This document shows, piece by piece, positions 3,712 to 62,355 of a DNA stretch of 64,000 nt. Position numbers and translations under genes: made by a program. The notes beneath the pieces were generated by a model. That model was given only the letters and a program-made list of their open reading frames with translations. It searched no databases and was not told the origin of the DNA. Numbering within the stretch: position 1 is the stretch's first letter; each line of letters starts with the position of its first letter. This DNA comes from Meghimatium bilineatum (Eukaryota; Mollusca; Gastropoda; Stylommatophora; Philomycidae): positions 9,600,140 through 9,664,139 of the forward strand of contig CM067298.1 of the NCBI GenBank assembly GCA_034231615.1, given 5' to 3'.

Positions 3712-4010
3712 TGCTCGTGTGTTGTCAGGACCTGAAGGGGCAGCCAAGAATGCCAAAACTTTTATCTTCCATGCAGATAAAACACCATACCTTGAGGCGA
3801 CTAAGGAGGTTATGGGGTGGAGTAGACTGGCTCATCCTAAATAAGGCAAAAGTAACCCAGAAGTCATGCTAAAGTCGGAAGTCTCCGGCCGAAACGCGCT
3901 TATATTGCAGCAAAGCTGTAAGCCAGAACACATCGCAATCTGTTATCCGGTCTACGCCCTGCTAATATGCAGGAGTTTGAGAACGATTGCAAAAGAAGAT
4001 AGAAGAAAAT
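3712..4010 (+). mobile_element. GAA-tailed SINE, long form
   Basis: It aligns by eye along its length with the minus-strand copy at 25265-25550: a GAGGCGACTAAGGAGGTTAT core, a CGAAACGCG.. region, TCCGG(T/A)CTA, then GGAGTTTGAGAACGA and a GAA-rich tail at 3985-4010. It is an interspersed retroposon with no coding content. I found no clear target duplication for this copy. Confidence 0.65.
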
Positions 4011-4480
4011 ACTACTAGACAGCAAACACAAAAATGCGACATTTCTAGTCAGCAATAAACAAAGTAATGTGAAACGTTATCCATGCTTGCACCGACAAAT
4101 TATAAGCAGGAATTGAAACAATAATGTTTACATCAAATTACAAATCATCATGGGGATAAAAAAAAATAAAGGAAAAAACAAGATATCCGTCCCTTATTCG
4201 AAGATATCAATGTACAGATCTCTCGCAGATAATGGAGGCTTTGAAGAAATCATGGGAAAAGATGGATTGGATACAATGGGGAAATATTCTCTTCATCAAA
4301 GCAGCTGGATATGAGAGGAAGTACATTTCATATGAAAAGTAACGAAAAACTACATTGGGATTGACATGTTTAAAAAAATAAAAATAGCCCTTTATGGCGA
4401 GATACGTTTCTTTCAAACATGGACAGTAGTCTAATTTGGTTATATGGGAGTATTTTACATTAGAACAAATAATGTAGGCC
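4011..4480. other. no gene seen
   Basis: AT-rich sequence. The short open frames here show no family motif. Confidence 0.5.
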
Positions 4481-4481
4481 A

Positions 4482-4570
4482 GGGGTCTGCAACCTTTTTC
4501 TAACTGTGTGCCAACTTAAAGTTTCAAATTATTCAGAGTGCCAACATCACATATCATTTTATACAAGTCG
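4482..4570 (+). mobile_element. solitary hAT-type transposon end
   Basis: CAGGGGTCTGCAACCTTTTT is typical of the terminal inverted repeats of hAT (Charlie-like) elements, and it is followed by the usual GTGTGCCA text. I could not find the matching right end (GGTTGC..ACCCCTG), so the element is truncated or its end is too worn. Confidence 0.5.
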
Positions 4571-4714
4571 AGGCCAGTATTCTTATTTTAGCATAAATTT
4601 TATTTTTATATTTTAATTAATTAATATATAGTGATATTGAATAATATGTAAAGTTGTAAACAACATTAAAAGAAATTGAGTTTCTTGAAAGATTAAAGAA
4701 AACTTTTTATTATT

Positions 4715-4865
4715 AATTTATCTTGCTGGTGTGACTCTAATTATACACGTAATCATTTATTTTGGCTGGTGTGACTGATCATACACGTAATCATTTATCT
4801 TGGCTGGTATGACTGTGATCATACACGTAATCATTTATCTTGGCTGGTGTGACTCTGATCATACA
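4715..4865. repeat. about 41-bp tandem repeat, about 4 copies
   Basis: The unit contains CTTGGCTGGTGTGACT, then GATCATACACGTAATCATTTAT. Small indels make the unit 38-43 bp. Confidence 0.85.
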
Positions 4866-4979
4866 TCGCTTTGCCTGCACCTTGTGTCTACAACTAATGA
4901 ATATCACTGGGAAAGTCAAATAATGATACTTTAGAAGGATTAATTGCGATCCACAGGACTGTATTATTGAGAGGCTCGG

Positions 4980-5070
4980 ATTAGGGGTCGCAATACCGGA
5001 CACTTTTACCAAAACCGGTATTTTCGATATTGAAGTGTACGAGTACCGGATTTCCGGTATTTTCAATATT
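4980..5070 (+). mobile_element. hAT-like end with subterminal repeats
   Basis: TAGGGGTCGCAATACCGG is followed by two CCGGTATTTTC-x-ATATT subterminal repeats. That style is seen in hAT elements. No matching right end was found within 500 bp, so only the end is annotated. Confidence 0.35.
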
Positions 5071-5360
5071 TAGAGAAGCTTTTGTCGAGATTAGAGGTGA
5101 CAATTTATCATTGAAATAAAAACATTTAGGGAAAAAACCCAGATTTTAATGTTTAATAAGTTTTTAACAATAACAAAAATGCCTAACTTCAGACTTTAAT
5201 CAAACGAACAAAAATAATATTTTAAACTTTTCAATTTAAATAGTTTTATTAATCAAATATTAAAGTAATTGGTGTTATTATTAACCTGTAGTCAGATTCC
5301 GCATTTAGGTTTATTTTGTCAAGCCCCCCCCCCCCAATTCTTTTATTAATATTATTATTA

Positions 5361-5765
5361 CGAGAAAGACTAGTTCAAGTTGAAATAACACTTCAGGAAC
5401 GAGAAAGACTAGTTCAAGTTGAAATAACACTTCAGGAACGAGAAAGACTAGTTCAAGTTGAAATAACACTTCAGGAACGAGAAAGACTAGTTCAAGTTGA
5501 AATAACACTTCAGGAACGAGAAAGACTAGTTCAAGTTGAAATAACACTTCAGGAACGAGAAAGACTAGTTAAAGGTGGAACACCACTTCAGGTACGAGAA
5601 AGACTAGTTTGCGGTGAAGAACATTGCAGGAACGAGAAAGACTAGTTCAAGTTGGAAGAACATTTCAGAAACGAGAAAGACTACCGGTAGTTCAAGGTGA
5701 AAAACATCTCAGGTACGAGAAAGACTAGTTCAAGGTGGCAAAACATTTTAGGTAGGAGAAACCTT
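5361..5765. repeat. 39-bp minisatellite, about 10 copies
   Basis: The unit CGAGAAAGACTAGTTCAAGT + TGAAATAACACTTCAGGAA repeats exactly at 5361, 5400, 5439, 5478 and 5517, then decays toward 5765. Its 13-codon period makes a spurious RERLVQVEITLQE repeat protein on the plus strand. A C11 tract lies just before it at about 5324. Confidence 0.95.
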
Positions 5766-5789
5766 AAGACCGTATTGATACTAAATAAA

Positions 5790-60164: not shown

Positions 60165-60300
60165 TTGCCAAAAAATTTCTGGGTTGATGGCAAAATCCTG
60201 ATTGTTGCTGGGTTGATGGCAACATCCTGATTGTTGCTGGGTTGATGACTACATCCTGAATGTTGCTAGGATGATGACTACATCCTGAATTTTGCCAACT
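60165..60300. repeat. about 30-bp tandem repeat, 4 copies
   Basis: The unit is GCTGGGTTGATGGCAACATC + CTGATTGTT. Confidence 0.9.
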
Positions 60301-60414
60301 GTTTTTAAAGGTTTACATATTTACATTCGCGTTATTTGCAAAATGGAAGCAGATAAAAGAATAAAGAGCTAACCAACTCTGATCAGTACTCCAGTCTGAA
60401 GCCCGTAGATGAAA

Positions 60415-60458
60415 GAGAGAGAGAGAGAGAGAGAGAGAGAGAGAGAGAGAGAGAGAGA
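60415..60458. repeat. (GA)n microsatellite
   Basis: About 21 GA units. Confidence 0.96.
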
Positions 60459-60662
60459 AAGGGTTCATACATGTTAGAAAATCCGAAGATAACGTTAATA
60501 CATAAGGAAGGTAAAAGAGCTGAAAATCTCACCACCACACCCCCCCCCCAATCCTTTTTCACTGGTTTTCCAAATAACCGTCAACAATAACGAATCTCAT
60601 GAAAAACAAGAATTACAAACAAAAATTAAGACATTGAATTATTTTAGATAACTCGTCACTTA

Positions 60663-60990
60663 CCCTTTCATCATCATCATCATGTGACGTACTCTCCCCA
60701 GAGAGTTGTTTTGCTAATGAACTCCCTGAACCTTTTCTGGCTCTCGCGATGCGGCTTGAATTTTCTGACGACGTATTCATATTATCTTTAATGAAGTCAG
60801 TCTTCTTGGTCTGTCCTTTCTCCTCTACCCAAGTTCTCTTCCCTCCATTATTTGTCTTTCTAAACAGTCGTGTCTCTTTATATGACCAAACAGGTGTAGT
60901 TTTCTTTTTGTTATTGTGTTTAGTAACCAACACTCTGGAATCTTCAATGCGTTTATAATATCTCAGCTTCTCCCCTTTTCCATCCATGAT
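60663..60990 (-). mobile_element. LINE ORF2 tail, family A, copy 3
   Basis: The minus strand shows TKRKLHLFGHIKRHDCLERQ + IMEGRELG-stop, then shifted text equivalent to RRRGRPRWTDDIKDN, and a (ATG)n tail after ACGTCAC at about 60672-60690. It aligns with 1115-1377 and retains the 3' microsatellite tail. Confidence 0.78.
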
Positions 60991-60994
60991 ATTC

Positions 60995-61435
60995 TAATTT
61001 ATACTAGTAAATTCAAATAGGAAGCTTGAGGATAAATTAAACATTCTAGAAACTAGTTGGAATTCAACCAAGTCCGCTCTAGCGGCATCGAATCGCATTG
61101 CAACTCCAGTAAACGGAATTTTCGGTATTTGACTAACGACATTCCCCCCAAAAGATGCAATTTTTTCAAGACATTTGTTCAAACTTTGTACTCGTCACTG
61201 AGAAGGGGCCAATCGAGACAAGAGAAACCGAGAACCTCTATTATTACAACGAACATTCCGTACAAGTATTGACGTATTCTCACAAACATATAAAATCCGT
61301 AGTCGTACTACAAGGACCGAAAGGTCTTTTTGTAAACATAAATAACATGATACAGTACAACAGAAATAAGAAGCAGAATAGGGCAGGCAAAAACTACATT
61401 CAGAAAAATGAAAAATATATTGTGTAATATGACAT
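60995..61435. other. no gene seen
   Basis: Short plus-strand frames (61057-61427) have no recognisable motif. A related AGGAAGC.TGAGGATAAATTA + AACATTCTAGAAA stretch recurs near 62158-62195, so part of this is repetitive. Confidence 0.4.
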
Positions 61436-61439
61436 TATC

Positions 61440-62115
61440 ATTAGAGGTGAGAAAGAGAGTTATACAGTGCTATATAACTCCTATATTAACATATGGATGC
61501 GAGTCTTGGACAATAAACTGGAAAGTTGGAAATTAGAAGCAACAGAGATGTGGTTCTATAGAAAAATGCTGAGAATATCATGGACTGCCAGAAAAACTAA
61601 TGTGGAAGTGTTGAAAGAGTCAAATGCGAAACGGACTTTAATCGATAATATAAGAAAAAGACAATCTTCATTTTTTTGGCCACTTCATGGGATAGGCAGG
61701 TTTGGAGAACATAGTCACAACAGGCAAGATTGAAGGCAACAGAGACAGAGGGCGACAACGTGAGAAAATATTAGTTTGACAAACTGGCACGGCAGGGAAA
61801 CAACAACGATCTTTATACATAATACTAGGGACCAAACCCGAAATAAAGGAATGACGAAAACTGATGTGCTGGACCTTGGACGGCCTGACCACAAGTGACC
61901 ATCCGGGGTGCAAATAATCACAGTTTTACTGTGAACTTGCAGCACTACGTACTTCACGCTCCCTGGCGGAAATCACACGAAATATTCGTTGTGGTTATTT
62001 GAGAGCGAACGCTGAAGAAGAAGAAGAAGAAGAAGATACATAATACTGGAAACAGAGAGCTGTGGAGAGGCATGATCGCCTACGCCAGCCTGCATGGCAC
62101 CTGATGATGATGAAA
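61440..62115 (+). mobile_element. LINE ORF2 tail, family E, copy 3, interrupted by a SINE
   Basis: YTPILTYGCESWTINWK-type text, ATEMWFYRKMLRISWTARKT, NVEVLKE, then in another frame LVTTGKIEGNRDRGRQREK; after the SINE (61827-62035), NRELWRGMIAYASLHGT-stop and a TGATGATGA tail. The two halves join smoothly across the duplicated ATACATAATACT. It lacks the RT palm. Confidence 0.85.
61827..62035 (+). mobile_element. GAA-tailed SINE with perfect 12-bp TSD
   Basis: ATACATAATACT at 61815-61826 and 62036-62047. The 209-bp insert starts AGGGACCAAACCCGAAATAA, passes TGATGTGCTGGACCTTGG and CTCCCTGGCGGAAATCAC, and ends TTTGAGAGCGAACGCTGAAG + (AAG)n. It is inserted in the sense direction of LINE family E. 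Confidence 0.92.
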
Positions 62116-62264
62116 GTACAGTGTTACTTCACATAATAGCGTATACAAGCAAATTCAAGTAGGAAGCAAGAGGATAAATTATAAATTCTAGAAATAACTA
62201 AAATTGATTCGGTGCCACTAGAACGGACTTGGTTCAATTCCCGTTAGTTTCTAGAATGAGATTT

Positions 62265-62355
62265 TTCTTCTTCTTCTTTCGTTCACTTGAAACATGTCTA
62301 TATATCTGTAATTCTGTCTCCTTAATAAAACTCACTGTCTTTTGTAGTTCATACA
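62265..62355 (-). mobile_element. 3' end of GAA-tailed retroposon, third type
   Basis: TTCTTCTTCTTCTTTCGTTC + ACTTGAAACATGTCTATATA and CTGTAATTCTGTCTCC...AAAACTCACTGTCTTTTGTA mirror 55200-55280. Confidence 0.7.

What the first reader, a model, noticed from the sequence alone, without database searches (positions are those of the whole stretch)
3712..62355. Modular retroposon superfamily sharing one GAA-repeat 3' end
At least 12 pieces with three body types (short 155-165 bp; long 209-286 bp; 742 bp) plus a third tail type share a 3' end of the form GAGTTTGAGAACGnnnGAAGAAG or CAAGTGAACGA..AGAAG. Sites: 3712-4010, 9321, 12279, 16925, 17354, 18052, 21411, 22943, 25265, 38476, 40070, 41460, 54473, 55090, 61827, 62265. 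Four short copies start at the same place (about CCTCCGAAGACG), so the short form looks full length. Module sharing (the short SINE start inside the 742-bp element; a CGAAAGGGCCCA block in the 742-bp and third types) suggests recombination between families moved by one LINE machinery. Seen: sequence sharing and TSDs. Inferred: a common mobilising LINE.
Basis: partly seen in the sequence, partly recalled or inferred. Interest (0 to 1): 0.7.

Follow-up and report, generated by a model that had tools for sequence, protein, structure and literature searches.

The report
Slug short retroposons with GAA tails
A land slug genome carries several families of short 'copy-and-paste' DNA that end in GAA repeats; some of them carry the end of a reverse-transcriptase element that is abundant in the same genome, a known kind of parasitism seen here in new families.

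Summary
The window's 1.61 Gb genome matches, by its numbers, the land slug Meghimatium bilineatum. Three related short families (here S ~165 bp, L ~275 bp, I ~215 bp) end in GAACG-(GAA)n or close variants; 7 of 12 window elements tested have significant target-site duplications. S is collinear with the 3' half of L, so these are one lineage, not unrelated bodies. Their 3' ends form a hairpin supported by compensatory changes. That LINE was found: RT plus RNase H, frames open to 799 aa, five of six fetched copies 93-99% identical, 14,196 exact 3' ends. The 742-bp element ends in codons homologous to its last codons, at peptide level only. So a mobilising LINE is supported for 55090, likely from a relative for the 742-bp element, and only suggestive for S, L and I, whose hairpin the LINE lacks. 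No Pol III head was found. Modular LINE-tailed short retroposons are a known kind; these are new members.

The parts
9319..9556 (-). S copy (S1) with an internal ~35-bp tandem expansion
   Evidence: no significant TSD
16923..17088 (-). S copy (S2), full length, TSD ATATCCAGGCCT
17354..17511 (-). S copy (S3), full length, 11-bp TSD with 1 mismatch
18052..18214 (+). S copy (S4), full length, 12-bp TSD with 1 mismatch
21411..21576 (-). S copy (S5), full length, TSD GAATGACAAAT
28787..28928 (-).
   Evidence: no significant TSD
3712..4004 (+). L copy (L1), full length, diverged
   Evidence: read against the consensus; no significant TSD
25264..25549 (-). L copy (L2), full length
   Evidence: TSD weak, P 0.056
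22941..23000 (+). L copy (L3), 5'-truncated to the last 60 bp, 17-bp TSD with 1 mismatch
22941..22985 (+). 3' hairpin of L3
   Evidence: fold z -5.18; aligned in A1
41462..41526 (-). L copy (L5), truncated, no GAA tail
   Evidence: TSD P 0.056
32608..32664 (-).
   Evidence: fold not significant
61827..62042 (+). I copy (I1), full length, 14-bp TSD with 1 mismatch
12276..12400 (+). I copy (I2), diverged
38476..39219 (+). 742-bp element (M), TSD AAACAGGAAAAG, inserted in a LINE copy
   Evidence: paralogue without the insert at about 33148-33386, which also lacks 8 bases at the site
39119..39172 (+). end of M: SDLEKTVDFVLTTGLTV*, homologous to LINE last codons
55085..55276 (+). T1: short element whose end (55199-55280) is LINE-derived
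   Evidence: 92.7% over 82 bp
62262..62374 (-). T2: 5'-truncated 3' end of the LINE, 97.3%
40084..40126 (+). T3: last 43 bp of the LINE, 95.3%
11818..12078 (+). internal piece of the same LINE (RT region), 93%

Best explanation
These are non-autonomous retroposons of a land slug, copied by target-primed reverse transcription. S, L and I form one lineage with a fixed 5' end, a conserved terminal hairpin and a GAACG-(GAA)n-type end. T1 (55090) ends in the last codons, short 3' UTR and (GAA)n of an RNase H-bearing LINE; M (742 bp) ends the same way with codons of a relative. That LINE is abundant and has copies with long open frames; T2 and T3 are truncated copies of it. Shown: TSDs, truncations, varying GAA tails, an imperfect empty site, the LINE with its RT and RNase H, the shared last codons. 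Inferred: that LINEs of this group copy T1 and M (likely), and also S, L and I by reading the terminal GAACG-(GAA)n box, with or without the hairpin (less sure).
For: TSDs in 7 of 12; site without the insert; 14,196 exact LINE 3' ends against 0 controls; 6 of 6 fetched LINE 3' ends carry homologous last codons (one with an internal stop) and 5 of 6 match over about 2.3 kb at 93-99%; RVT_1 7e-40 and RNase_H 7.5e-16; the M end peptide has as its five best non-self hits among 609,746 six-frame windows one M-like end and four T ends, scores 31-44 against 25 for the next; a diverged lineage of the same LINE (L003; 29% over residues 635-799, E 6e-10) also ends in (GAA)n; hairpin 90.7% paired against 33.6-45.4% when slid, 20 double-change cells against 6.9 shuffled.
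Against: The LINE 3' end and M have no significant fold (z 0.42, 0.51, -0.18 for the last 60, 100, 150 nt of one LINE copy; 0.79 for M), unlike L3 or I2. M has no nucleotide match to the LINE and its last 25 nt do not match (P 0.228). Similarity of S, L and I ends to the LINE end is marginal. In 28 loci the 29 L-type tails lie on L units or their truncations, and no LINE match ends just before an exact L or S tail in the loci L001-L058. No promoter was identified.
Confidence: 0.65

Rival explanations
1. S, L and I are driven by another, unfound LINE lineage of the same RNase H group whose own 3' UTR holds the hairpin; the LINE found drives only T1- and M-like elements.
For: Conserved hairpin in S, L and I but not in the LINE; at least one other lineage of this LINE group with a GAA end exists (L003; its RNase_H and zf-RVT matches are below cut-off).
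Against: No LINE with an L-type end among the 29 tails examined (upstream 4.5 kb, only 1.5 kb for eight loci); the L003 lineage ends in TCGCA(GAA)n, not in the hairpin.
Confidence: 0.4
2. Another LINE type with a (GAA)n tail (L050 type, RTE-like by recall) is the driver.
For: L050, L028 and L052 end in AAAGAAGAAG after a shared C terminus.
Against: No GAACG box; ends not similar to L, S, I or M (P 0.37, 0.69, 0.52, 0.52); T1 carries 82 bp of the RNase H LINE instead.
Confidence: 0.1
3. All pieces are parts of one long element, differing only by 5' truncation.
For: True for T2 and T3 (LINE) and for L3, L5 and L6 (L).
Against: S and L have their own fixed 5' ends, S with TSDs at that end in 4 of 6 window copies.
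Confidence: 0.03
4. The GAA repeats are independent microsatellites and the shared ends are chance.
For: The window is rich in tandem repeats.
Against: 1,457 and 14,196 exact genome-wide copies against 1 and 0 controls.
Confidence: 0.01

Closest known systems
Stringent-type LINE/SINE pairs (eel UnaL2/UnaSINE1; reviewed in PMC3747384 and PMC5135761, passages read)
   Same: Short elements with a LINE-derived 3' end, a terminal stem-loop and a short tail repeat.
   Different: Here the stem-loop is in S, L and I but not in the LINE that was found; the tail is GAA; the LINE bears RNase H.
Short retrotransposons of gastropods and bivalves that share bodies and tails (Matetovici et al. 2016; not held; content recalled, only its title seen in a reference list)
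   Same: Modular 'jigsaw' sharing of bodies and tails, some without a tRNA head (recalled).
   Different: Other species; sequences not compared.
Nin-SINE and related conserved-domain SINEs of molluscs (PMC11121367, passages read)
   Same: L holds GTCGTAAAAGGCGACTAA, which I recall from abalone-type SINEs; this resemblance is recalled, not tested.
   Different: Nin-SINE of Lottia is described as having Box A and Box B; no tRNA-like head was found in L.
I-superfamily LINEs of gastropods, Nimbus and Ingi (PMC11203168, passages read)
   Same: RT and RNase H in one ORF; present in several gastropods listed there.
   Different: Position of this LINE was not tested by a tree; the assignment is recalled.

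Membership tests
SINE (Pol III-derived) | tRNA, 7SL or 5S RNA-derived head with Pol III promoter | tested here: not met
   No such Rfam match at E up to 5 in two L copies, one S, one I and M (the few other matches were far below gathering scores); ARAGORN 0 tRNAs in the window. A diverged promoter is not excluded.
SINE (Pol III-derived) | short, dispersed, TSD-flanked, fixed 5' end | tested here: met
   7 of 12; 23 of 29
SINE with a LINE tail | 3' end homologous to a LINE of the same genome: T1 and M | tested here: met
   T1 at nucleotide level; M at peptide level only (no nucleotide match)
SINE with a LINE tail | 3' end homologous to a LINE of the same genome: S, L and I | tested here: inconclusive
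   25-nt ends, P 0.018, 0.043, 0.091
Stringent-type LINE/SINE pair | shared 3' stem-loop in SINE and LINE | tested here: not met
   Present in S, L and I; not significant in the one LINE copy folded
I-superfamily LINE (for the driver) | reverse transcriptase and RNase H in ORF2 | tested here: met
   2 of 2 copies scanned; RNase H alone does not prove the clade
I-superfamily LINE (for the driver) | endonuclease, ORF1, position in an RT tree | not tested
   The 5' part was not fetched and no tree was built
Nin-DC / Snail / Meta domain SINE superfamilies | match to the published central domain | not testable with these tools
   Two of the papers concerned are not held

The most novel reading that the evidence does not exclude
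S, L and I are headless retroposons (no Pol III promoter) whose 5' ends are set by their own RNA and which are taken up through a hairpin that their driving LINE does not have: the parasites kept or evolved a recognition structure that the LINE lost.
Probability: 0.12. Interest if true: 0.6.

Novelty: new member of a known kind. Interest (0 to 1): 0.36.

Why it matters
One genome holds short elements with different amounts of LINE-derived 3' end next to an abundant LINE with copies that read open, so the 3' features that an RNase H-type LINE needs could be tested. It also hints at under-annotation: the genome paper's table lists 0.60% SINE, whereas S alone has 6 copies in this 64-kb window; such copies may sit in its 16.35% unknown class.

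Tried and rejected
Chance and microsatellite origin: rejected by control patterns. One long element: rejected for S and L. tRNA, 5S or 7SL head: not found. The LINE family with (TGA)n tails that dominates the RT hits (tail present in 26 of its 30 fetched loci) was set aside as driver because of its tail. Nucleotide homology of the M end to the L003-type LINE end was not significant, and the M peptide scan did not list L003 among its top 28; the full LINE protein does align to L003 up to its last residue. Sequence terms in open papers: none, two unrelated papers. Scans of viral contigs and GTDB contigs found nothing. Not done, mainly because the genome search was busy: the LINE 5' end, a LINE tree, exact S, I and M copy numbers, a search for a hairpin-ended LINE. 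S density is rough: 6 in 64 kb of window; 11 in 121 kb chosen for L; 2 in 112.5 kb chosen for RT; 1 in 22.5 kb other; the last three sets are not random samples.

Hairpin tests: the arms in the swap test (12 window copies, 75 of 84 pairs against 70.8 swapped, P 0.0063) were picked by hand. In 3 of those 12 (S1, S2, L1) the minimum-energy fold does not use the named outer stem. One search used a MAFFT alignment of 42 sequences (40 distinct) with a structure that I named. Of the 52 stretches listed, 38 were used (some trimmed) and 14 were not (among them two that look spurious, and copies from L002, L013, L014, L019, L021, L025, L026, L027, L028 and L036); four window rows came from elsewhere. 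S1 and L6 were left out.

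Full report
Source. The genome holding the window has 1,612,235,226 bases in 32 contigs, the window being C1:9600140-9664139. Contig lengths seen (C1 135.71 Mb, C14 68.08 Mb, small contigs from C26 on) match the land slug Meghimatium bilineatum: 1.61 Gb, 25 pseudo-chromosomes plus seven unanchored scaffolds, largest 135.71 Mb, scaffold N50 68.08 Mb (PMC10770140, passages read). The identification rests on these numbers only.

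The pieces. Self-comparison and profiles give six S copies, five L-type copies (two full, three truncated), two I copies, the 742-bp element M and three T-type ends. The short pattern has 707+750 exact copies genome-wide against 1+0 for the reversed control. In the 28 loci then in hand (8 with 1.5 kb upstream, 20 with about 4.5 kb) the pattern matches 29 times, on L units or truncations of them. Long upstream similarity between loci was seen only for one duplicated pair and one overlapping pair. Aligned, 17 S copies (6 window, 11 loci) are collinear with the 3' half of L. L has a consensus of about 275 bp; 23 of 29 copies start within 11 nt of one point, identity to the consensus 0.77-0.97.

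Retroposition. TSDs at the ends: 7 of 12 window elements tested at P below 0.01 against 3,000 random flank pairs, 5 not. L3 keeps only the last 60 bp with a 17-bp TSD (1 mismatch), as 5' truncation would leave. M lies in a LINE copy between AAACAGGAAAAG repeats; a paralogous copy in the window lacks M, but also lacks 8 bases at the site, so it is not a perfect empty site. GAA tails vary in length.

The hairpin. Just before the tail, L, S and I can form a hairpin of up to 17 pairs. On 40 distinct sequences 90.7% of cells pair, against 33.6-45.4% with slid partners; 20 cells change on both sides (shuffled mean 6.9, 0 of 500 shuffles as high); 7 pairs have double changes (15 of 500 shuffles as high). 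The second pair is G-C in 22 and A-U in 10. Single-copy folding is uneven: among the 12 window copies with arms, z runs from -0.98 (S2) to -5.18 (L3), and in S1, S2 and L1 the best fold does not use the outer stem. The sequences are related, so shuffles overstate significance.

The LINE. Reading frames in the ends of M and T gave the lead: M ends SDLEKTVDFVLTTGLTV* and T ends ELQKTVSFIKETELQI*, both followed by a short stretch and GAA repeats. Against 609,746 six-frame windows, the M peptide's five best non-self hits are an M-like end (44) and four T ends (37, 37, 34, 31); the next scores 25. The T end occurs 7,142+7,054 times exactly, controls 0. Six of the 100 listed places were fetched: all six carry homologous last codons (one with an internal stop), five match each other over about 2.3 kb at 93-99%, one keeps only about 175 bp; two of the five have broken frames. 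The three examined for frames are open over 799, 787 and 765 aa, to or nearly to the piece start; two were scanned and hold RVT_1 and RNase_H above cut-off, and the RT matches LINE-1 ORF2 chains by sequence. In the window this LINE accounts for 62262-62374, 40084-40126, 55199-55280 and 11818-12078; M is not matched at nucleotide level. A diverged lineage, L003, aligns to LINE residues 635-799 (29%, E 6e-10) and ends in TCGCA(GAA)n, as do L014 and L017.

How it most likely works. The LINE protein copies RNAs that end like its own: shown for the LINE's own copies by truncation and tail, inferred for T1 and M from their LINE-type codons. S, L and I share with it at most a short GTTT...GAACG-(GAA)n end (P 0.018, 0.043 and 0.091), and the LINE end has no significant fold. 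So either the box suffices or another LINE lineage drives them. A further GAA-ended LINE type, RTE-like by recall, is seen in L050, L028 and L052. In the loci L001-L058 no match to the LINE protein ends just before an exact L or S tail.

Known or new. LINE-tailed SINEs with stem-loops are established (PMC3747384, PMC5135761, passages). Modular bodies and tails in gastropod short retroposons were reported by Matetovici et al. 2016 (recalled; not held). I found no paper with these sequences, which covers open-licence PubMed Central papers only. They are new members of a known kind, with two unsettled points: no Pol III head, and a hairpin that the LINE found here lacks.

Noticed in passing
window 33150-33790 and 37580-39800: Degraded LINE copies (RTE-like by recall); one carries the 742-bp insertion, which gives an order of events.
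   Followed up: partly
L029-L058 and further places listed: A very abundant LINE (RTE-like by recall), frames up to 1027 aa in the list, with a (TGA)n tail at the stop codon in 26 of 30 fetched loci; 82,272 first-look RT candidates in the genome.
   Followed up: partly
L050:2750-2775, L028:365-383, L052:539: A second LINE type that also ends in (GAA)n.
   Followed up: partly
window 59278-60191 (-): Old RT fragment, about 23% identical to the LINE found.
   Followed up: partly
window 9357-9445: S1 has a 35-bp tandem expansion inside the hairpin region, a possible seed of a minisatellite.
   Followed up: no
window 1-64000: 95 tandem-repeat rows (some overlapping) in 64 kb.
   Followed up: no
L001 and L002: Two L copies about 450 kb apart share flanks (92.6% over 1.67 kb) and, by eye, the TSD, so the insertion was probably duplicated with its surroundings.
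   Followed up: no
L consensus, 5' end: By eye, a GTGTTGC...GCAACAC inverted repeat around CCC-GAAA-GGG; the computed fold does not pair these two arms; no ribozyme match in Rfam.
   Followed up: partly
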